Shown here piece by piece: positions 20,243 through 45,916 of a stretch of DNA of 52,032 nucleotides. A model generated the notes under the pieces. The model did not search any database. It was not told the DNA's origin and worked only from the letters and a program-made list of their open reading frames with translations. Position 1 is the stretch's first letter. Each line of letters starts with the position of its first letter. Origin of the DNA: an uncultured Hymenobacter sp. (GTDB taxonomy: Bacteria > Bacteroidota > Bacteroidia > Cytophagales > Hymenobacteraceae); the NCBI GenBank assembly GCA_913778455.1, contig CAJYVK010000029.1:1-52032 (forward strand), given 5' to 3'. The position numbers were made by a program, and so were the translations under genes.

Positions 20243-22861
<2,619 letters not shown>

Positions 22862-37763: not shown

Positions 37764-38023
37764 GAGTTATGAGTTAGAAATTATGAGTTGGGGGTGTGAT
37801 AGGCTACGCAACGGATAAGCCATTGCGCCATCTAAGCCTAGCTACAAATTTCTGGCTATTGAAGCTGTTCAGAAAGTCCTACGCATCCCCCGGCGTTCGT
37901 CATGCTTCGCAAGCTCAGCATGACGAACGCCGGGGGATGCGCAAAGAATGCGTGCGGGAAATTTCCTGCGCAGCTACCTAAAAATTGTCATTGCACCAAC
38001 TCATAACTTTTAACTCCTAACTC
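37764..38023. repeat. Long inverted repeat, family F, enclosing a REP hairpin
   Basis: The arms 37764-37791 and 37996-38023 are built of (T)TATGAGTT-type units and match at 25 of 28 positions. They enclose a 204-base loop that holds the family A hairpin at 37882. The element fills nearly all of the 268 bases between the molybdopterin-subunit stop and the GTG of the next gene. Confidence 0.65.
37882..37941. repeat. Perfect REP hairpin, family A
   Basis: 25-bp perfect arms (CGCATCCCCCGGCGTTCGTC and onwards to ATGCT) around the 10-base loop TCGCAAGCTC. The inner part GTTCGTCATGCT matches the REP pair at 39751. Confidence 0.8.
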
Positions 38024-38029
38024 CCCAAA

Positions 38030-38632
38030 GTGCACAACGATCCCATTGCTACCGTGGGCCTGCTGTTGCTGGCTGCTGGCTCGTCGTCGCGGCTGGTCCG
38101 TCCCAAGCAATTGCTTCATTACCAAGGCCAGACGCTGTTACGCCGGGCCGCCGAGGTAGCCGCTGCCAGCCCCTGCCGCCCGCTCGTACTCGTAACGGGT
38201 GCCCTGCACGACGAGCTACTGCCTGAAATTGACGGATTACCCTTCCACGTGGTGCGCAACGACGCCTGGGCCGATGGCATGGGTGGCAGCATCGCCGCCG
38301 GCCTCGCCGAGCTCGAAACCGCCGCCGAAGCTCCCAAAGTCGATGCCGTAGTGGTGATGCTGTGCGACCAGCCCCTGCTGAGCGAGGAAATTATCGGTCA
38401 GCTCATCGTGCAGTTTCAGGCCACCGGCCAGCCGGTGGTAGCCTCGGCCTACGCGGGTACGCAAGGCGTGCCGGCGCTCTTCAGCCGCGAGATTTTTCCG
38501 CAGCTGCTGGCGCTGCGTGGGGCCAGCGGCGCCCGCGAGCTACTTCAGCAATATACCCACCTGCCTACCGTAGATTTTCCCGGCGGCACCATTGATGTTG
38601 ATACCGAAGCCCAGTATGCGGCCCTAGGGTAG
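38030..38632 (+). CDS. MocA-like molybdenum cofactor cytidylyltransferase
   Basis: A 200-residue nucleotidyltransferase of the MobA/MocA group. It has the N-terminal nucleotide-binding motif LLLAAGSSSRLVRPKQLL (residues 13-30), FHVVRNDAWADGMGGSI, and the metal-binding VVVMLCDQPLLSEE. Enzymes of this type attach CMP to the molybdenum cofactor, giving the MCD form that PaoABC-type hydroxylases use, which fits its place at the end of the operon. Translation starts at a GTG, as no ATG is available. The LVRPK in the loop replaces the more usual MGxPK. Confidence 0.87.
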   Translation: MHNDPIATVGLLLLAAGSSSRLVRPKQLLHYQGQTLLRRAAEVAAASPCRPLVLVTGALHDELLPEIDGLPFHVVRNDAWADGMGGSIAAGLAELETAAEAPKVDAVVVMLCDQPLLSEEIIGQLIVQFQATGQPVVASAYAGTQGVPALFSREIFPQLLALRGASGARELLQQYTHLPTVDFPGGTIDVDTEAQYAALG

Positions 38633-38657
38633 CGTGAGGTGCTGATTTTACAAAGTC

Positions 38658-38709
38658 GCCTGGTGGCTGGCCTCTCCACGGAAGCGGGCCAGCCACCGGG
38701 CGCTTTTTG
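38658..38709. terminator. Rho-independent terminator after the molybdenum operon
   Basis: A 15-bp stem (GCCTGGTGGCTGGCC / GGCCAGCCACCGGGC, one T-G pair) with a 14-base loop, followed by GCTTTTTGC. It separates the operon from the convergent oxidoreductase gene, which starts its stop at 38715. Confidence 0.8.
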
Positions 38710-38714
38710 CTTTG

Positions 38715-39608
38715 CTAGCTGCCCATGATTAGCTCGCGGCTCAGGGTCGCGCCCGCCAGGTTGCCCGCCGCGATGGCCAGCGCCAGCTGCGGCAGAGCCA
38801 CGCTGCAATCGCCGGCCGCGTACACGCCCGGCACGGTGGTGCGGTAGCTGGCGTCGGTGCGAACGAGTACCTGCTCCGTGATCTCGCAACCTAGCTGCGC
38901 GGGTAGCTCGCTGGCCTGCTGCCACGGCAGGCGGGCGTAGAGTATGGGCAGCGGCCAGGTGCGGCCATCGGCTAGGCGCAGGGCGGTGAGTTGGCCATCG
39001 GTATGCAGCAGCTCGGCCACGGGCGTTTGTACCAGACCGATGCGGTGGGCATCCAGCAGCTCGTGCACCTCGGGGCCGAAGGTGGCCGGGCCGTTGGTGA
39101 AAATGGTGAGTTGGTGCGACCAATTGAGTAGCATCTTTACTTGGTGCTCGACTTCGGGGCCGTTGTTCCAGATGCCCGTGGGAAGGTCAGCCACCTCGTA
39201 GCCGTGGCAAAAGGGGCAGTGAATCACCGATTTGCCCCAACACTCGGCAAAGCCGGGCACGGGCGGCAATTCGTCGCGCAGGCCAGTAGCCAGCAGCAGC
39301 CGGCTGGCCGCGAAAGTGCCGTGCGTCTCGGTAGTCACCTCAAACGAGCCATCGGGAAGCTTGGCGGCGGCGGTGGCCTGGGCTTCGAGCAGTTGCACGG
39401 TAGGGTAGGCGGCTACCTGCTGGCGGGCGCGGGCGGCGAGGTCGGCGGGCGCGTCGCCGTCGTGCAGTAACAGGTTGTGGGCGTGGGGCGTGAAGCGGTT
39501 GCGTGGGCGGCGGCTATCGAGCACCAGCACTGAGCGCCGGGCGCGGCCCAGGGCCAGCGCCGCGCTCAGGCCGGCGTAGCTGCCGCCGATAATGAGTACG
39601 TCGAACAT
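38715..39608 (-). CDS. Thioredoxin-reductase-like FAD/NAD(P) oxidoreductase
   Basis: A 297-residue flavoprotein with the layout of thioredoxin reductase. FAD binding: VLIIGGSYAGLSAALALGRA at the start. The redox-active pair is in IHCPFCHGYE (CxxC near residue 130), and the C-terminal FAD motif is VYAAGDCS. The NADPH motif region is weak: GIWNNGPEVEHQV lacks the classic GxGxxA pattern, as in the shorter thioredoxin-reductase-like group. It may reduce a disulfide partner or another small acceptor; no thioredoxin gene is adjacent. Confidence 0.87.
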   Translation of the reverse strand: MFDVLIIGGSYAGLSAALALGRARRSVLVLDSRRPRNRFTPHAHNLLLHDGDAPADLAARARQQVAAYPTVQLLEAQATAAAKLPDGSFEVTTETHGTFAASRLLLATGLRDELPPVPGFAECWGKSVIHCPFCHGYEVADLPTGIWNNGPEVEHQVKMLLNWSHQLTIFTNGPATFGPEVHELLDAHRIGLVQTPVAELLHTDGQLTALRLADGRTWPLPILYARLPWQQASELPAQLGCEITEQVLVRTDASYRTTVPGVYAAGDCSVALPQLALAIAAGNLAGATLSRELIMGS

Positions 39609-39750
39609 AGGAATAGGGGAGGGCCGACTGTTTTGCCGGGGCTCCTATCCAAAGTTAAGCCTTATTTCTTATTTTGAAACAATGTTGCATAATGTGGGGC
39701 CAAGTTCACTCGCGTCCATCCTATTATCATGTCCGTCGTCTTCCCTCGTC

Positions 39751-39843
39751 CGTCATGCTGAGCTTGCGAAGCATCTTGCTCGGTTCGTTGAGCGTCGTAG
39801 CCCTAGCGGTGCGAGCAAGATGCTTCGCAAGCTCAGCATGACG
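39751..39843. repeat. Long paired REP hairpin, family A
   Basis: A perfect 32-bp inverted repeat (arms 39751-39782 and 39812-39843, beginning CGTCATGCTGAGCTTGCGA) around a 29-base loop. It lies in the 361-base gap before the Septu-like genes. The TCGTCATGCTGAGC core is shared with 37882 and, more loosely, with family B. Confidence 0.85.
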
Positions 39844-39907
39844 AACGTGTGTTTTGAAAGAAGAGAGCGCTACCCTGATTATGCCTAAGCCGCCACCGCT
39901 GCTACGG

Positions 39908-39941
39908 TTGCAGCTAGCTCTTGGCAGGAATGTTATTTTTG
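39908..39941 (+). promoter_or_regulatory. Promoter of the Septu-like pair
   Basis: A perfect TATTTTTG (TAnnTTTG) at 39934 with a TTG at 39908, 23 bases apart, at the upper limit of the known spacing. It ends 28 bases before the ATG at 39970. Confidence 0.5.
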
Positions 39942-39969
39942 AGGTGTTTCGATTTTCCCTTTCCGCGCA

Positions 39970-41319
39970 ATGGCTGACAAACCCACCACGCCGCCCCCGG
40001 CCTACTTCCTCTCCCTTAGCCTGGAAAACGTGCGCAGCTTTGGGAAGAAGCAAACGATTTCCTTCGCGCGGGCGGATGGCCGGCCAACGCAGTGGACGAT
40101 TATTTTGGGGGATAATGGGGTGGGGAAGACTACGGTGTTGAAGAGTTTGGCCGCTTCTACGAATAAGGTCACATTCAATAATGGTTATGAGGCGTATGGC
40201 TCGTATTTTGACTTCGATTGGGAAAGCAAATGGTGGCCTGTTAGGGATTATGACAAAGGAGCAACACAAATAAGAACTCGTGTGCAAGGAGGAATAAGAT
40301 TGTGTGAGTTAAATGGGGATGTTATAGCTGGTGATTCTAGGATTTATTTGACTCGTCGCAATAGTTCTATTGCGGGCATTAGTATAGACTTTGAAGGATT
40401 TAGGTGCTATGGATATGGTGCCGGTCGCACCACCGGCAACTCCACTCTCAGCGAAGCCCCCGAAACTGCTGACACCTGTGCCAGCCTCTTCGACGACCGA
40501 GCCGACCTACTAAATCCCGAAGAGTGGTTTCTCTTTGCCGATTATCGCATAGCCAGAGACAAAGACCCGCTTACTACTCAAAACTTTGAGTTAATAAAAG
40601 AGGCCCTCCTCAAAATAATGGAGGAGGGAGAAGTGACCGACTTAGAAGTGATACCGCCGGGGCTACCCGGCCGCGGTAGCCCCCGCCAGGGCGTGCGCTT
40701 CAAAACGCCCTACGGCTGGGTACGCCTGCGCGACATGAGTCTCGGCTACCAAACGCTGGTGGTATGGCTCACCGACTTGGCCGACAAGCTATTCGTGCGC
40801 TACCCCGACAGTAAAAATCCGCTCGAAGAGCCCGCCATCGTGCTCATTGATGAAATCGACCTGCACCTGCATCCCAGCTGGCAGCGCAAGCTGCTGAAGT
40901 CACTGAGCGAGATTTTCAAGAATACCCAATTCATCGCCACCGCGCACAGCCCGCTGGTAGTGCAGGCGGCCAGCGATGCTGAAGCCAACGTGGTGCTGCT
41001 GAAGCGCGAAGGCGACCAGACCATTGTATACCAGGGCCACGATCTGCCCGACGTACGCCGCTGGCGAGTAGAGCAGATTCTCAATAGCGAGCTGTTCGAC
41101 GATACCCCGCCCTTATCGCCGCAGACGGAGGCCGACCTTGCCCGCCGCAACGAACTGCTACTCAAAAAGCGCCTCACAAAAGCCGAAAAGGCCGAGCTGG
41201 CGCAACTGGAACAAATAATCGCCGCGCAGCCCGTGGGCAGTACCGGCCCCGAGCGTCAGGCCGAAGACCTGCTAGCCCGGTTGGCCCGCAACCTCGGCCC
41301 CGAAGGTTTATTAAGGTAG
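39970..41319 (+). CDS. ptuA: AAA/ABC-type ATPase, Septu PtuA-like
   Basis: A 449-residue SMC/ABC-like ATPase. Walker A is GDNGVGKT (47-54), the degenerate signature is MSLGYQT (about residue 257), Walker B is VLIDEID with Asp294 and Glu295 followed by the D-loop LHLHP, and the H-loop is FIATAHSPLV. A charged helical tail (LAEADLARRN, KAEKAELAQLEQ-like) suggests oligomerisation. An HNH nuclease gene starts 7 bases after the stop; this ATPase + HNH pairing defines the Septu anti-phage system, in which PtuA controls the PtuB nuclease. Codons 58-150 lie in an A+T-rich block, roughly 40% G+C against about 60% outside, hinting at mosaic origin. OLD-family ATPases without PtuB are the main alternative. 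Confidence 0.68.
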   Translation: MADKPTTPPPAYFLSLSLENVRSFGKKQTISFARADGRPTQWTIILGDNGVGKTTVLKSLAASTNKVTFNNGYEAYGSYFDFDWESKWWPVRDYDKGATQIRTRVQGGIRLCELNGDVIAGDSRIYLTRRNSSIAGISIDFEGFRCYGYGAGRTTGNSTLSEAPETADTCASLFDDRADLLNPEEWFLFADYRIARDKDPLTTQNFELIKEALLKIMEEGEVTDLEVIPPGLPGRGSPRQGVRFKTPYGWVRLRDMSLGYQTLVVWLTDLADKLFVRYPDSKNPLEEPAIVLIDEIDLHLHPSWQRKLLKSLSEIFKNTQFIATAHSPLVVQAASDAEANVVLLKREGDQTIVYQGHDLPDVRRWRVEQILNSELFDDTPPLSPQTEADLARRNELLLKKRLTKAEKAELAQLEQIIAAQPVGSTGPERQAEDLLARLARNLGPEGLLR

Positions 41320-41326
41320 CCCGCCG

Positions 41327-42154
41327 ATGATTCGAATAACGAAAAGCCAGCCTGCGCCCGCACCGTTGACCACGCGGGGCACTCGGCACTTAAGCAAGCT
41401 GCAAGCCACGCAGGCCGCTGACCCCGCCGCGTGCCAGGTACCGGGTAATAAGCTGTTGGAATCGCGGGACGGCATCTACAACGACTCGCAAGTGAAGGCT
41501 CGCCTTTTGAGCGACCAGCACCGGAAGTGCTGCTACTGTGAGTCGCGTCCTACCAGCGTGAGCTACGGTGATGTAGAGCATTTTCGACCCAAAGGTGGCT
41601 ACCAGCAAGTGCGTGGCGGGCTGCTCCACAAACCCGGCTACTATTGGCTAGCCTACTCCTGGGATAATCTCTATTTCGCCTGCCACCTCTGCAATCAGGA
41701 ATTTAAGGGTAATTATTTTCCGCTACGCAACCCTGCCGGACGTGCCAAATGTCACACTGACTCGCTGGCCCAGGAGCAGCCGCTGCTGCCCGACCCGTCT
41801 ACTGAAGATCCGGCGCGCTACCTCACGTTTCGACAGGATGCCATTATGCCCAGGCGAGCCAGTCGCCGGGGGCAAGCCTGCATTGAGGCATTCGGTCTCG
41901 ATCGGCCCGAGCTAATAAGCCGCCGCATTGAGCACCTCAAGCGACTGATGCACGCGCGTATTATCGGTGGGCTCGACCTATCGCTGCCACTCAATGCGAT
42001 GGCCACCCAGTTTTTGCAGGAAGCGCGGCTGTCGTTGGATGAAGGGCGGATGCTGGTGGCGGATGCCCGCCGCATTTGGCTGGAAGCCGCGCTTGATACC
42101 GCCGAGTTTGCCGGTATGGTGCGGGCCAACTTTCCGCACCTGCCTACCGTCTAG
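41327..42154 (+). CDS. ptuB: HNH endonuclease, Septu PtuB-like
   Basis: A 275-residue HNH nuclease. The zinc-binding knuckles are C68/C69-x-C71 in KCCYCES and C119-x2-C122 in FACHLCNQEF, and the catalytic segment is DVEHFRPKGG with His85. This CxYCE ... EHFRPK ... CxxCN order is that of the PtuB/TIGR02646 group, the nuclease partner of PtuA in Septu and in retron Ec78. The remaining C-terminal 130 residues are helical and without a known motif. The short 7-base gap to the ATPase gene implies translational coupling. No reverse transcriptase is nearby, so a retron is unlikely. Confidence 0.72.
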   Translation: MIRITKSQPAPAPLTTRGTRHLSKLQATQAADPAACQVPGNKLLESRDGIYNDSQVKARLLSDQHRKCCYCESRPTSVSYGDVEHFRPKGGYQQVRGGLLHKPGYYWLAYSWDNLYFACHLCNQEFKGNYFPLRNPAGRAKCHTDSLAQEQPLLPDPSTEDPARYLTFRQDAIMPRRASRRGQACIEAFGLDRPELISRRIEHLKRLMHARIIGGLDLSLPLNAMATQFLQEARLSLDEGRMLVADARRIWLEAALDTAEFAGMVRANFPHLPTV

Positions 42155-42202
42155 CCAGCCGGCCGCTACCTTCGGGGCCATTCTTTCTTCACGACTCATT
42201 CT

Positions 42203-43615
42203 ATGCAGCCTACTGCTACCGCCGCGCCCGTCGAAAAAGACAATAAGCGCATTACCACCGGCTGGACGTTCTACGACTGGGCCAACTCGGTTTACCCGCT
42301 CGTTATTACCAGCTCGATTTTTCCGATTTATTGGGGTGGTATTACCAAGGAAATCAACCCCACCGACATGGTTGATTTTCTGGGCTTCCAGGTGCCGGGT
42401 TCCTCGTTGCTGACCTACGCTATCTCGGCGTCATTTCTCATCATTGCGCTCATCAGCCCGTTTCTGACCTCGCTGGCCGACTACTCGGGGCGCAAGAAGC
42501 TGTTCCTGCAAATCTTCTGCTACATCGGGGCCGCTAGCTGTGCCGGGCTGGCGTTGTTTACGAAGGATACGCTGACAATGAGTACGTTTATCTTCATCGC
42601 GGCTACGGTGGGCTTTAGCGGTAGCATCGTGTTTTATAATTCTTACCTACCCGAAATATCCTCCGAGGAGAAGTTTGACTCGCTCTCAGCGCGGGGCTTT
42701 TCGATGGGCTACATCGGCTCGGTGCTGTTGCTGGTCATCTGCCTGGGCATAATCATGGGGCCGCACATTGCGGGTGGGCCGGAGGGCGTGGCGCTATTTG
42801 GCATGACTACCGGTACCGCCACGCGGCTCAGTTTTTTGCTCACGGGGCTGTGGTGGATAGGTTTCGCCCAGATTCCCTTCTTCACGCTGCCGCCCGATAC
42901 CGGCCGCCCCGCCGATGCGCCCGTTTCCCAAGATGGCTGGTTGCTCAATGGCTTTCGTGAGTTGGGCAAGGTGTGGGATCAGCTCAAGCAACTGCCCAAT
43001 CTCAAGCGCTTCCTGCTGGCCTACTTCACCTACAATATGGGCGTGCAGACGGTAATGTACGTGGCGACTATTTTCGGCGACAAGGTATTGCAGCTGGATA
43101 GCACCTCTCTTATTGTTACCATTTTATTGCTGCAAATCGTGGGTATACTGGGCGCGTGGCTGTTTGCCAAGCTCTCGGAGCGCATCGGCAATACGCGGGC
43201 ACTGAGTTGGGCGGTGTTTATCTGGATGCTCATCTGCATCGCTGGCTATTACGTGCAAAAGGGCTGGAGCTTCTTCGCGCTAGCGGCCGTGATTGGCCTC
43301 ACGATGGGGGCGGTGCAGAGCTTGTCGCGCAGCACGTATTCCAAGATCATCCCCGAAAATACGCCCAACACGGCCGCCTTCTTCAGCTTCTTCGATGTCG
43401 TCGAGAAGCTGGGCATCGTCATCGGTACGCTCTCGTTTGGGCTGATTGGCCAGCTAACCGGCTCCATGCGCAACAGTATTTTGTCGCTCATCCTGTTCTT
43501 TATCGTGGGCCTGGGTTTTCTACTGACCTTGCGCGGCAAGAAGCTCCGCGACGAAGGCGCGGGGGTGCTGCCCCCGCCGCCCGCCTCGGCGGCCGCCGAA
43601 ATGAGCCGGCCGTAA
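42203..43615 (+). CDS. MFS transporter (UMF1/Atg22-like)
   Basis: A 470-residue membrane transporter with about twelve hydrophobic helices. The N-terminal WTFYDWANSVYPLVITSSIFP is the hallmark of the UMF1 group related to yeast Atg22. Other typical parts are FLTSLADYSGRKKLF after the second helix, YNSYLPEI, and the second-half GAVQSLSRSTYSKIIPE. Homologs are thought to export small molecules such as amino acids; the substrate is unknown. TACCTTCG at 42167 may be its -7 element. Nothing links it functionally to the Septu-like pair in front of it. Confidence 0.87.
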   Translation: MQPTATAAPVEKDNKRITTGWTFYDWANSVYPLVITSSIFPIYWGGITKEINPTDMVDFLGFQVPGSSLLTYAISASFLIIALISPFLTSLADYSGRKKLFLQIFCYIGAASCAGLALFTKDTLTMSTFIFIAATVGFSGSIVFYNSYLPEISSEEKFDSLSARGFSMGYIGSVLLLVICLGIIMGPHIAGGPEGVALFGMTTGTATRLSFLLTGLWWIGFAQIPFFTLPPDTGRPADAPVSQDGWLLNGFRELGKVWDQLKQLPNLKRFLLAYFTYNMGVQTVMYVATIFGDKVLQLDSTSLIVTILLLQIVGILGAWLFAKLSERIGNTRALSWAVFIWMLICIAGYYVQKGWSFFALAAVIGLTMGAVQSLSRSTYSKIIPENTPNTAAFFSFFDVVEKLGIVIGTLSFGLIGQLTGSMRNSILSLILFFIVGLGFLLTLRGKKLRDEGAGVLPPPPASAAAEMSRP

Positions 43616-43665
43616 ACGGTGGGGCCAGCTTGCTACCTTAGCGCTCCACCTTATTTTCAGTAATT

Positions 43666-44175
43666 ATGTACACTGCTTCGCTACAGCAGAATTTCTTAGC
43701 TGAGCTTACTCACGAACTGGCTCAGACCCGCCGCGTGCTGGAGCGCGTGCCCTTCGAGCAGGCTGATTACCGGCCCCATCCCAAGAGTATGACGCTGTGG
43801 CAGCTAGCCACTCACGTTGTCAACCTGCTGGCTTTCAAAACTCTATTTCTCACGCACGATAGCCGCGACTTTCTCGATCCCAACGCGCCCAAGCCCGGCC
43901 CCACGCCTACGAGCCACGAAGAGCTGTTGGCTCGCTTCGAAGAATATAGCGACCTGCTGCGCCGCGAGCTGCAAGCCAGCGACGACGAAAAGCTAACCCA
44001 GAATTTTCGGCTGCACCGGGGCGAACACGTAATCTTTGATCGGCCTAAAGGCACGGCCATGCGCATTATGGGCCTCAACCATAGCATCCACCACCGCGGC
44101 CAGCTCACCGTGTATCTGCGCTTGCTCGACGTACCGGTGCCCGGTCTCTACGGTCCCAGCGCCGACGAGCAATAG
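43666..44175 (+). CDS. DinB-family four-helix protein
   Basis: A 169-residue DinB/DUF664-type protein. The three conserved histidines that bind a metal in this fold are visible in WQLATHVVNLL (about 49), and the C-terminal NHSIHHRGQLTVYLRLL (about 145). The start is LAELTHELAQTRRVLERVP, a typical first helix. Members include bacillithiol- and mycothiol-linked transferases and many of unknown function. Length is normal. TACCTTAG at 43634 may be the -7 element. Confidence 0.85.
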   Translation: MYTASLQQNFLAELTHELAQTRRVLERVPFEQADYRPHPKSMTLWQLATHVVNLLAFKTLFLTHDSRDFLDPNAPKPGPTPTSHEELLARFEEYSDLLRRELQASDDEKLTQNFRLHRGEHVIFDRPKGTAMRIMGLNHSIHHRGQLTVYLRLLDVPVPGLYGPSADEQ

Positions 44176-44190
44176 ACTTGCTGAATAAGC

Positions 44191-44253
44191 AACGTCCGTC
44201 ACCCGGAGCATACTGCGTATTAAAGACGCAGTATGCTCCGGGTGACGGACGTT
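44191..44253. terminator. Perfect 28-bp hairpin between convergent genes
   Basis: Perfect arms 44191-44218 and 44226-44253 (AACGTCCGTCACCCGGAGCA...) with a 7-base loop, followed by TTTTTG on the plus strand. It lies between the DinB gene and the leftward amidohydrolase gene and probably ends transcription. Its outer part CGTCCGTCA recalls family A REP arms, so it may be a REP recruited as a terminator. Confidence 0.75.
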
Positions 44254-44257
44254 TTTG

Positions 44258-45916
44258 TTATTTTTTGATAAATACTCGCCGACCGCCTATCCACGTCTGC
44301 TGCACCGGCGCGTTGCGCAATTGCTCGTTGGGTGCGGTGAGCAGATCAGTTTTGAGCACCACGAAGTCGGCCAACATTCCGGGCTTTATCTGGCCTTTGC
44401 GCCGGTCCTCGAAGGCGGCGTGGGCAGCCCAGGTGGTCATGCCGCGCAGGGCCTGCTCGCGGGTGAGGGCATTGTTCATCTGGAAGCCGCCCGCGGGGTA
44501 GTTTTTAGCATCTTGCCGGGCTACGGCGGCGTGGTAGCCGTAGAGCGGGTTGATGTCTTCGACCGGAAAATCGGACCCCAGCGCCACCTGACCGTACTGC
44601 TTCAGCAGCTCCTGGTAGGCATAGGCGGTGGGTAGGCGCTTGGCTCCCAGCCGCTCACCGGCCCAGTACATATCGGAAGTGGCGTGGGTGGGCTGCACCG
44701 AGGGCACGATGTGGTACTGACCAAACTTGGGCATATCGGTCGGGCTCACTACCTGCGCGTGCTCGATGCGCCAGCGACGGTCGGGCTGGCCCTTGAGGGC
44801 CGCGCCGTAGATGTCGAGCAGCAGCCGGTTGCTGGAATCGCCGATGGCGTGGGTGTTCATTTGAAACTTGGTAGCCGCCAATTCCTGGGCTAGTGCCCGG
44901 TAGTAGCCCGGGTTTTGCAGTAGAAAGCCCGACTCGTGCGGCCGGTCGGTGTAGGGAGCCAGCAGCGAGGCCCCCCGCGAGCCCAGCGCCCCATCGGCGT
45001 ACACCTTGAAGGAGCAGATGGTGAGATTGTCGCTGAAGTACGGGCCTTTAGGCAGGTAGTACGCCTTGTTTTCGGGCGTGGGGTTGAGCATAGTGTAGAG
45101 GCGCAGGTGCAGCTTGCCAGCCTGCTGCATGGCGGCCATGCGCTCGATATCCTCGCGGTTGAGGCCGGCGTCGGCGAGGCTGGTGAGGCCCACGGCCAGG
45201 CAATTTTGCTGGCCTTGCAACAGGGCAGCCTCGGCCTCGGCGGGGCTGGGCTCGGGTATGTTGGCGGCCACCAGCTTTACGGCGTTGTCCACGAGCAGGC
45301 CGGTGAGGCGGCCCTGCGCGTCGCGCCCGATCACGCCGCCGCTGATGGGCGTGCCAGCCGTGACGCCCGCCAGGTCGAGTGCCTTTTGGTTGACCAGCGC
45401 CGCGTGCCCGTCGATGCGGATCAGAAATACCGGCACATCCGGAAACAGCGCGTCGAGCGTATCCTTGGTGGGGAAGTGCCGGCCGGGCCAGTCGTTCTGG
45501 TCCCAGCCCCGGCCGGTGAGCCAGGTCGCGCCCGGCTGCTGCCGATGGTGCTCGGCAAGGCGGCCCACCGTTTCGGCCCACGAGCTGGCTCCCACGAGGT
45601 TGGCCGAGCGCAACCCCAGCGCGTAGCGGTAGAAGTGGCAATGCGCATCATAAAAGCCAGGGTATATAAATTGGCCACCCGCGTCCACCGTCTGCGCGGC
45701 CTGGTAGCGGCCCTGTAAATCGGCCGTTTTACCCACATCTACGAAGTGCCCATCGCGCACCGCAAAGGCCTCCACTTTGCTAAAAGCTGAGTCTACCGTG
45801 TACACCGTGGCGTTGGTTACGAGCAAATCGACGCGCTCCCGCTGGGGTCCGCAGCTAGCCATCGCCAACGCAACTCCCACAGTTAAAGCACTCCCAAGTT
45901 TATAAGTAAGTCGCAT
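44258..45916 (-). CDS. YtcJ-like amidohydrolase lipoprotein
   Basis: A 552-residue metal-dependent hydrolase of the YtcJ/LAF3 group. The start at 45916 gives a lipoprotein signal with lipobox AMASC (Cys at about 20); the frame is open to 46165, but that part has no signal-like character. Family motifs: LLVTNATVYTVDSAFSKVE, PGFYDAHCHFY (metal-binding HxH), TWLTGRGWDQNDWPG, GLTSLADAGLN, YADGALGSRGASL, QMNTHAIGDSSN, RIEHAQVV and LGSDFPVEDINPL. The substrate is unknown. Its stop is adjacent to the 28-bp hairpin. Confidence 0.9.
   Translation of the reverse strand: MRLTYKLGSALTVGVALAMASCGPQRERVDLLVTNATVYTVDSAFSKVEAFAVRDGHFVDVGKTADLQGRYQAAQTVDAGGQFIYPGFYDAHCHFYRYALGLRSANLVGASSWAETVGRLAEHHRQQPGATWLTGRGWDQNDWPGRHFPTKDTLDALFPDVPVFLIRIDGHAALVNQKALDLAGVTAGTPISGGVIGRDAQGRLTGLLVDNAVKLVAANIPEPSPAEAEAALLQGQQNCLAVGLTSLADAGLNREDIERMAAMQQAGKLHLRLYTMLNPTPENKAYYLPKGPYFSDNLTICSFKVYADGALGSRGASLLAPYTDRPHESGFLLQNPGYYRALAQELAATKFQMNTHAIGDSSNRLLLDIYGAALKGQPDRRWRIEHAQVVSPTDMPKFGQYHIVPSVQPTHATSDMYWAGERLGAKRLPTAYAYQELLKQYGQVALGSDFPVEDINPLYGYHAAVARQDAKNYPAGGFQMNNALTREQALRGMTTWAAHAAFEDRRKGQIKPGMLADFVVLKTDLLTAPNEQLRNAPVQQTWIGGRRVFIKK

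What the first reader, a model, noticed from the sequence alone, without database searches (positions are those of the whole stretch)
39970..42154. Septu-like ATPase + HNH nuclease pair
Seen: an SMC/ABC-type ATPase with intact Walker A, Walker B and H-loop, followed after 7 bases by an HNH protein with KCCYCES, EHFRPKGG and a second CxxCN knuckle, driven by one TAnnTTTG promoter. Known: PtuA/PtuB form the Septu anti-phage system, and retron Ec78 uses the same pair with a reverse transcriptase. Inference: this is a stand-alone Septu-type defence cassette. It has no other defence genes around it and sits behind a 32-bp REP hairpin.
Basis: partly seen in the sequence, partly recalled or inferred. 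Interest (0 to 1): 0.72.

Follow-up and report, generated by a model that had tools for sequence, protein, structure and literature searches.

The report
Septu defence pair with hypervariable ATPase domain
The gene pair looks like a genuine two-gene Septu-type anti-phage system, and the unexpected part is that related bacteria keep its working core almost unchanged while carrying different versions of one internal segment, as if the system's recognition part were being swapped.

Summary
Window 39970-41319 encodes a 449-aa PtuA-type ABC ATPase, 41327-42154 a 275-aa PtuB-type HNH protein. Both match PADLOC Septu profiles nearly full-length (435 and 277 bits). No reverse transcriptase was found in the genome.

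New here: this subfamily occurs in 21 of 120 genomes of the genus. In 20 of 21 it lies upstream of one core MFS-permease gene, directly in 12; relatives show a clean empty site.

PtuA residues 61-141 are 15% identical on average across the 21 proteins, against 87% for 1-60 and 89% for 246-345. The block is AT-rich in all 21 (GC3 0.24-0.42) and forms 20 allele groups. Two species share an allele while differing downstream; there, codons 61-105 show 12 silent and 1 replacement differences. A second block has four types, and the C-terminus travels with PtuB (Mantel r 0.75-0.87). Two other Septu groups in the genus show no such dip.

Reading: an ordinary Septu core with exchangeable modules; the hypervariable block probably recognises, or escapes, phages. 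Exchange is supported; that function is inferred.

The parts
39691..42144 (+). Whole cassette, as defined by the empty site in relatives
   Evidence: In G028, window 38500-39690 and 42145-42793 align to stretches 30 bp apart; in G084 the break is 39694|42147, with 162 bp between
39752..39842 (.). REP-like palindrome, two 28-bp arms; dispersed repeat, not specific to Septu
   Evidence: 137 copies in the genome at <=3 mismatches, control 0
39934..39941 (+). Bacteroidota-type -7 element TATTTTTG (promoter type recalled)
   Evidence: TAnnTTTG present in 19 of 21 sequences at -27 to -52
39970..41319 (+). ptuA, ABC/SMC-type ATPase, 449 aa
   Evidence: PADLOC PDLC00304 435 bits; structural match to PtuA Z 23-24
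40108..40134 (+). Walker A GDNGVGKTT (aa 47-55)
   Evidence: Identical in 21 of 21 except G50, 20 of 21
40150..40392 (+). Hypervariable AT-rich block V (aa 61-141)
   Evidence: 15% mean aa identity, GC3 0.24-0.42 in 21 of 21; only intra-ORF break in the syntenic comparison with G107
40555..40704 (+). Block B2 (aa 196-245), four allele types
   Evidence: typed on aa 190-245; 36% mean identity
40837..40875 (+). Walker B and following IDLHLHP (aa 290-302)
   Evidence: 21 of 21 identical
40939..40953 (+). H-loop TAHSP (aa 324-328)
   Evidence: 21 of 21 identical
41005..41316 (+). PtuA C-terminal module (aa 346-449), co-inherited with PtuB
   Evidence: Mantel r 0.85 at aa level, 0.75-0.87 at nt level for aa 360-449
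41327..42154 (+). ptuB, HNH protein, 275 aa
   Evidence: PADLOC PDLC00339 277 bits
41525..41542 (+). KCCYCE zinc knuckle (aa 67-72)
   Evidence: C68 and C71 21 of 21
41576..41599 (+). EHFRPKGG HNH motif (aa 84-91)
   Evidence: E84, H85 21 of 21
41681..41695 (+). CHLCN second knuckle (aa 119-123)
   Evidence: C119, C122, N123 21 of 21
42203..43615 (+). ATG22-like MFS permease, core gene that anchors the slot
   Evidence: Pfam ATG22; found in 120 of 120 genomes of the genus
38715..39608 (-). Thioredoxin-reductase-like gene, other side of the slot
   Evidence: Pfam Pyr_redox_2; directly upstream of the MFS gene in G084, G028 and G105

Best explanation
This is a stand-alone Septu (PtuA-PtuB) system occupying a fixed chromosomal slot in Hymenobacter. 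An ABC-type ATPase (PtuA) holds the HNH nuclease (PtuB) in check and releases it on phage infection, which then cuts nucleic acid to stop phage growth; this general scheme is carried over from Septu and retron effectors elsewhere and was not shown here. What is shown from sequence is that PtuA is a mosaic. Its ATP-handling framework is conserved, a block right after the Walker A helix (V, aa 61-141) differs almost completely between species, a second block (B2) comes in four types, and the C-terminal part is inherited together with PtuB. V alleles are most likely exchanged by homologous recombination through the conserved flanks. V most likely forms the surface that decides which phage trigger activates the system, or that must change to avoid phage inhibitors (inferred).
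For: Septu identity. Catalytic residues conserved. V: 15% mean identity against 87% for aa 1-60 and 89% for aa 246-345. Between adjacent 15-codon bins at codon 61 the nucleotide identity of G000/G107 falls from 0.96 to 0.42. Of 15 alignment gaps over 50 bp in about 46 kb of synteny with G107, the V gap is the only one inside a single called ORF. V is the lowest-GC3 81-codon stretch of any called ORF in the window (0.31; next ORF 0.46; median 0.81 over 2331 windows). Swap rather than drift: G021 and G005 share V (73% identity) but are 26% identical in B2 and 49% in C; in V codons 61-105 they have 32 identical, 12 silent and 1 replacement codon. In 209 of 210 pairs V positions 1+2 are not more conserved than framework fourfold sites (means 0.36 and 0.62), while framework fourfold sites (0.58, 0.64) are as diverged as the core MFS gene (0.60). 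Modules: C with HNH r 0.75-0.87, V with N -0.01, V with F -0.03, B2 with C -0.03, MFS-segment control 0.46. AU tests: framework DNA rejects the six-member effector clade (p 3e-5) and G005+G096 (p 0.0014); effector data reject two framework groupings (p 3e-18, 3e-32). The V profile, which was built from these 21 sequences, finds no further match in the 120 genomes.
Against: No phage experiment. Only one V allele is shared by two species, so exchange of V itself rests mainly on that pair and on the abrupt boundaries; that pair has 7 silent and 21 replacement differences in codons 106-141, so the allele is shared in its first half only. One genome per species was available, so within-species variation is unseen. 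Many V blocks are weakly similar to each other (about 20-40% over part of their length) and V positions 1+2 are above the unrelated expectation (0.36 vs 0.26), so fast change in place contributes or cannot be excluded. The AU groupings were named after seeing the trees. The AF2 model has no confidence in V (pLDDT about 27), so its surface position is not shown. V has the lowest GC of the seven segments in only 14 of 21 genes; in 7 it is M or B2. The frame partly follows the chromosome: N+F with MFS 0.28, F with MFS 0.32, MobA with N 0.35 and with B2 0.44 over 15 genomes; V itself has r 0.20 (p 0.016) with MFS, which pure free exchange would not predict. N with C is 0.22 (p 0.034).
Confidence: 0.6

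Rival explanations
1. Plain Septu. V is only a tolerant surface loop or linker evolving fast under weak constraint; no swapping and no recognition role.
For: V is weakly homologous among alleles; AF2 cannot model it; no Pfam match for the window V, and among the other 20 only five families, each matching a single member.
Against: In the one shared allele the first half of V is under purifying constraint (12 silent to 1 replacement in codons 61-105), though codons 106-141 are not. All 21 are in open frames with 81-126 residues, R92 is invariant, and W28 of the block is at least 90% conserved. Two other Septu groups in the genus show no such dip (group B is only 5 sequences, 3 of them near-identical).
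Confidence: 0.2
2. V and the rest diversify to avoid phage-encoded inhibitors of PtuA rather than to detect phage.
For: The same sequence pattern would be produced by an arms race with anti-Septu proteins; no call here separates the two.
Against: No direct evidence for or against. A Septu without a retron RT needs some trigger-recognition surface of its own (argument, not a result).
Confidence: 0.3
3. V is diversified by an internal mutagenesis or cassette mechanism such as a diversity-generating retroelement or silent donor copies.
For: One short block varies inside a fixed scaffold, as in DGR targets (PMC10907252, passages).
Against: 18 of 21 carrier genomes have no RVT_1 match at E <= 1e-5, and the matches in the other 3 lie on other contigs. 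No second copy of V DNA in the own genome, which is 91% complete. No extra V-profile match at E <= 0.01 in any of 120 genomes.
Confidence: 0.03
4. The divergent block is a sequencing or binning artefact (chimeric MAG).
For: The window's genome is a 403-contig assembly, 91% complete.
Against: The same block with the same boundaries and AT content is present in 21 genomes including near-finished ones (G015 in 1 contig, G079 and G014 in 3, G005 in 4), all in frame.
Confidence: 0.01

Closest known systems
Septu (PtuA/PtuB), E. coli (PDB 8ee4/8eea; Septu EcB88)
   Same: ATPase plus HNH protein and no RT; PtuA fold (Z 23.4 with 8eea_D, 23.0 with 8ee4_E). Septu EcB88 is reported to cut tRNA-Tyr in its variable loop after T6 infection (PMC13096335, abstract and sections 4 and 8 read).
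   Different: 24% identity over the structural alignment; hypervariable V block, allelic B2 block and a fixed core-gene slot, none of which I found described in the searches listed in the report.
Retron type I-A effectors PtuA/PtuB (Ec78/Eco7, Ec83/Eco4)
   Same: Same protein families and best structural matches (Z up to 24.1). Targets differ between I-A members: Eco7 depletes tRNA-Tyr, Eco4 does not (PMC11555353, abstract and section 7 read), which fits effector modules being exchanged.
   Different: No reverse transcriptase in the genome; NCBIfam retron-type models below cut-off.
Type I restriction HsdS target-recognition domains
   Same: Conserved scaffold with swappable recognition segments exchanged by recombination (recalled comparison, no call).
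   Different: No relation in sequence or fold was tested; recognition of DNA by V is not claimed.
DGR-diversified conflict systems (PMC10907252, abstract start and passages seen)
   Same: A hypervariable segment in a putative defence protein, proposed as a sensor.
   Different: No RT in 18 of 21 carriers; the whole block differs, with changes of length.
Core defence hotspots (PMC10250203, start of abstract in the search listing)
   Same: Variable defence cargo between conserved core genes.
   Different: Small slot with one 2.45-kb pair here; integrases were not searched for, none was noticed among the genes identified.

Membership tests
Septu | PtuA-type ABC ATPase homologue | tested here: met
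   PDLC00304 435 bits, aa 6-442 of 449; Z 23-24 to solved PtuA
Septu | Adjacent PtuB-type HNH homologue | tested here: met
   PDLC00339 277 bits, aa 1-272 of 275, 7 bp downstream
Septu | Intact ATPase and HNH active-site motifs | tested here: met
   (motif roles recalled)
Septu | No associated reverse transcriptase (separates it from retrons) | tested here: met
   0 RVT_1 matches in G000; genome 91% complete
Septu | Protects against phage | not testable with these tools
   needs phage plating
Septu | PtuA-PtuB complex formation | not testable with these tools
   only indirect: PtuA C-terminus co-inherited with PtuB
Retron type I-A | RT and msr-msd with PtuA/PtuB | tested here: not met
   no RT in genome; no Rfam family reaches its gathering score in 38000-44500
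Retron type I-A | NCBIfam retron PtuA/PtuB equivalog cut-offs | tested here: not met
   128.3 vs 500 and 45.3 vs 150 bits
DGR target | RT plus template repeat | tested here: not met
   18 of 21 carriers without RVT_1; no second V copy in the own genome
Core defence hotspot | Conserved core flank with variable defence cargo | tested here: met
   MFS anchor in 120 of 120; Septu upstream of it in 20 of 21 carriers; HEC-03-type pair directly upstream of it in G065 and G025 (PADLOC run on the G065 copy only); empty in others. 40 of 99 non-carriers examined

The most novel reading that the evidence does not exclude
Septu PtuA in Hymenobacter acts as a polymorphic immune receptor: a fixed ATPase motor carries an exchangeable pathogen-recognition domain (V) and an exchangeable effector unit (PtuA C-terminus plus PtuB), reshuffled between species at one chromosomal slot, so that specificity and killing activity evolve independently.
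Probability: 0.35. Interest if true: 0.82.

Novelty: new variant of a known kind. Interest (0 to 1): 0.6.

Why it matters
What switches a stand-alone Septu on is, as far as I know (recalled), not settled. A natural panel of 20 V allele groups on a nearly constant framework, with the effector end assorting largely independently, points at a specific stretch of about 80 residues as the likely determinant and makes the question testable by domain swaps. It also suggests that a two-gene defence system can diversify by module exchange without a mutagenic retroelement.

Tried and rejected
Retron or DGR reading: rejected. REP hairpin as part of the system: rejected, 137 copies genome-wide. Low-GC donors of V: comparison of all 21 V blocks with the loci then held found no outside donor; the closest outside V is that of G592, another genus of the family, 41% identical to the V of G014. 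First AF2 model (5 sequences) was useless (pLDDT 44.9); the second (17 sequences, mean pLDDT 63.0) is usable for the framework only. A scan of viral contigs with the close family found no relative; with a broader alignment, 35 loci of distant PtuA-like proteins. Plasmids gave 96 records and phages 7, all under 60% identity. An E. coli comparison set was sought with a phage-borne PtuA-like gene and found no match; dropped. Literature: searches for Septu with hypervariable (214 papers of which 15 listed), antiphage/hypervariable region/recombination/modular, sensor domain/allele, Hymenobacter with Septu (none), intragenic recombination and defence hotspot with Septu and others (229 papers of which 10 listed) showed no paper on this in their listings; subscription papers and preprints are not held, so this does not show it is unpublished. 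The 2024 structural work on E. coli Septu is recalled, not read.

Dropped rows: five more distant pairs (G028, G071, G088, G108, G081) were left out of the 21-member alignment and treated as a separate group B (5); 9 others form group C. The remaining weak HNH matches (for example G119, G025, G004, G083) were not analysed. Group B is a weak control (3 of 5 nearly identical, GC3 low throughout). G028, G071, G081 and G108 carry both B and C pairs; G028 and G081 are among the 40 of 99 'non-carriers' of this subfamily examined at the slot. Gene calls in the window and in fetched stretches are my own heuristic; in G067 PtuB was miscalled as an antisense ORF. G091 could not be placed because its MFS gene is on another contig. 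G592 was added in one alignment only.

Full report
OBSERVATION. Of five relatives found by the HNH protein in named genomes, three records are titled Hymenobacter, one Hymenobacteraceae and one (32% identity) Myxococcaceae; four of these contigs have the same lengths as contigs of G107, G091, G009 and G102, all of the window's genus, so the genus is taken to be Hymenobacter. The window is contig 29 of a 5.4-Mb, 403-contig assembly. The upstream repeat is a dispersed palindrome (137 copies).

IDENTITY. PADLOC models for PtuA and PtuB match nearly full-length at 435 and 277 bits. Pfam sees AAA_21/AAA_15 in the ATPase and nothing in the HNH protein at E <= 0.1. NCBIfam retron-type models match below their cut-offs. 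An AF2 model from 17 sequences has 10-residue pLDDT means of 77-86 over aa 11-60 and mostly 79-91 over aa 181-350, 45-64 beyond that, and no confidence in aa 64-143. It aligns to PtuA of retron Ec78 (9nnb_F, Z 24.1, rmsd 3.8, 294 residues) and of E. coli Septu (8eea_D, Z 23.4, rmsd 3.2, 287 residues), ahead of AriA (15.6) and SMC heads (13.8 and below). No RVT_1 in the genome. Of 20 other window ORFs given to PADLOC, one (20243-22861) gave hits, generic AAA ones. It is therefore a stand-alone Septu by sequence; anti-phage activity is not shown.

DISTRIBUTION AND SITE. At E <= 1e-8 the HNH protein finds 34 of 120 genomes of the genus, the ATPase 30 of 120 at 1e-20, own genome included; these counts include other Septu groups. 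A profile of the V block finds 21 of 120, which is this subfamily. The downstream MFS gene is in 120 of 120. In 20 of 21 carriers the pair lies upstream of it: directly in 12, with one, two or four further called genes between in 5, 2 and 1; the 21st (G091) has its MFS gene on another contig. Of 40 examined of 99 non-carriers, MobA lies directly upstream of the MFS gene in 14, the thioredoxin-reductase-like gene in 3, other genes in 22, and 1 had no MFS call. Against G028 and G084 the site is clean: the window has 2.45 kb where they have 30 and 162 bp. In G065 and G025 an ATPase pair lies directly upstream of the MFS gene; the G065 copy matches PADLOC HEC-03A/B at 114 and 445 bits. The slot therefore behaves as a small defence hotspot. 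No tRNA is in the window.

THE HYPERVARIABLE BLOCK. Among 21 ATPases the mean pairwise identity is 0.87 for aa 1-60, 0.15 for 61-141, 0.66 for 142-195, 0.36 for 196-245, 0.89 for 246-345 and 0.56 for 346-449. V is AT-rich in all 21 (GC 0.37-0.45, GC3 0.24-0.42; mean GC3 of N 0.74 and F 0.82); it is the lowest-GC of seven segments in 14 of 21 genes, M or B2 being lower in the other 7. In the window it is the lowest-GC3 81-codon stretch of any called ORF. In a comparison of about 46 kb with its relative G107, 15 alignment gaps over 50 bp occur and only the V gap (40154-40405) lies inside one called ORF. V lengths are 81-126. The V blocks are a weakly similar family. The window copy has no Pfam match at E <= 1. 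The V profile, built from these 21, finds nothing else in the 120 genomes at E <= 0.01, and the own genome holds no second copy.

SWAP OR DRIFT. Fourfold-site identity of the frame (0.58 and 0.64) is close to that of the MFS gene (0.60; saturation about 0.40), so the frame is not recently homogenised; it is old and constrained. V identity at codon positions 1+2 exceeds the frame's fourfold-site identity in only 1 of 210 pairs (the call did not name it). The V mean is 0.36 against 0.26 for shuffled pairings, so some homology remains. The only V pair with identity above 0.27 is G021/G005 at 0.73, with B2 0.26 and C 0.49. In codons 61-105 they have 12 silent and 1 replacement differences, in codons 106-141 7 and 21. 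The first half is what sharing of a functional cassette gives, and not what relaxed drift gives; it rests on one pair.

MODULES. Distance matrices agree for C-terminus and HNH (0.85; 0.75-0.87) and scarcely for others (V-N -0.01, V-F -0.03, B2-C -0.03), with two segments of MFS as positive control 0.46. Weak but nominally significant: V with MFS 0.20 (p 0.016), N+F with MFS 0.28, F with MFS 0.32, N with F 0.28, B2 with F 0.25, second half of HNH with MFS 0.22; M with B2 0.31, B2 with F 0.34, N with C 0.22, and MobA (15 genomes) with N 0.35, M 0.22, B2 0.44 and F 0.28. Part of the frame thus follows the chromosome. AU tests reject the effector clade (p 3e-5) and G005+G096 (p 0.0014) on framework DNA, and two framework groupings on effector data (p 3e-18 and 3e-32); the groups were named after seeing the trees. 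Seven of eight B2 x C type combinations occur.

CONTROLS. Septu group C (9 sequences) has identities of 0.58-0.75 over aa 61-120 and GC3 of 0.59-0.79 there, no dip comparable to V; group B (5) has 0.49-0.93 over aa 61-120 and is weak as a control.

MECHANISM. In E. coli, Septu cuts tRNA-Tyr in its variable loop after T6 infection (PMC13096335, abstract and sections 4 and 8 read), and retron PtuAB members differ in target (PMC11555353, abstract and section 7 read). By analogy PtuB is the nuclease and PtuA the ATP-dependent regulator. That V carries trigger recognition or evasion, and that the C-terminus plus PtuB carries target choice, is inference from the pattern of variation.

NOVELTY. The system is a known kind. 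The exchangeable hypervariable PtuA block, the independent effector module and the fixed slot were not found in the listings; these searches cover only the held open-access library, and two of them listed only a part of their matches.

Noticed in passing
L006:379-6639: Myxococcaceae MAG: a 1798-aa ORF with a PtuA-like ATPase end behind a long, NACHT-like region (label recalled from its motifs), followed by an HNH protein.
   Followed up: no
L180:2083-4209 and L181:2068-4182: Phage-contig PtuA-like proteins (709 and 705 aa) whose first residues resemble PtuB's, followed by a frame with an HNH-type motif; a Klebsiella plasmid carries a 692-aa AAA ATPase (L224:1664-3742) with a hypothetical protein overlapping its end.
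   Followed up: no
L165, L166, L167, L168: Four genomes of the genus (G108, G028, G071, G081) carry two different Septu pairs about 7 kb apart on one contig.
   Followed up: partly
L151:7986-9959: HEC-03A/B-type pair (PADLOC) directly upstream of the MFS gene in G065; homologues sit there in G025 too, marking the slot as a defence hotspot.
   Followed up: partly
L108:4937-5389 and homologues: HU-HIG DNA-binding protein gene directly upstream of ptuA in 8 of 21 carriers and found in 3 of 40 non-carriers.
   Followed up: partly
just upstream of the -7 element of ptuA in relatives: Inverted repeat like GGCCCGCC...GGCGGGCC, seen by eye in many of the 21 upstream regions, degenerate in the window and G107; possible operator or terminator. 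G112 and G056 lack TAnnTTTG.
   Followed up: no
window 39752-39842; 44190-44255: Palindromic stretches giving Rfam matches below gathering score; the first is the 137-copy dispersed REP.
   Followed up: partly
window 20243-22861: ClpB-like AAA protein (name recalled from size and hits); generic PADLOC AAA hits only.
   Followed up: no
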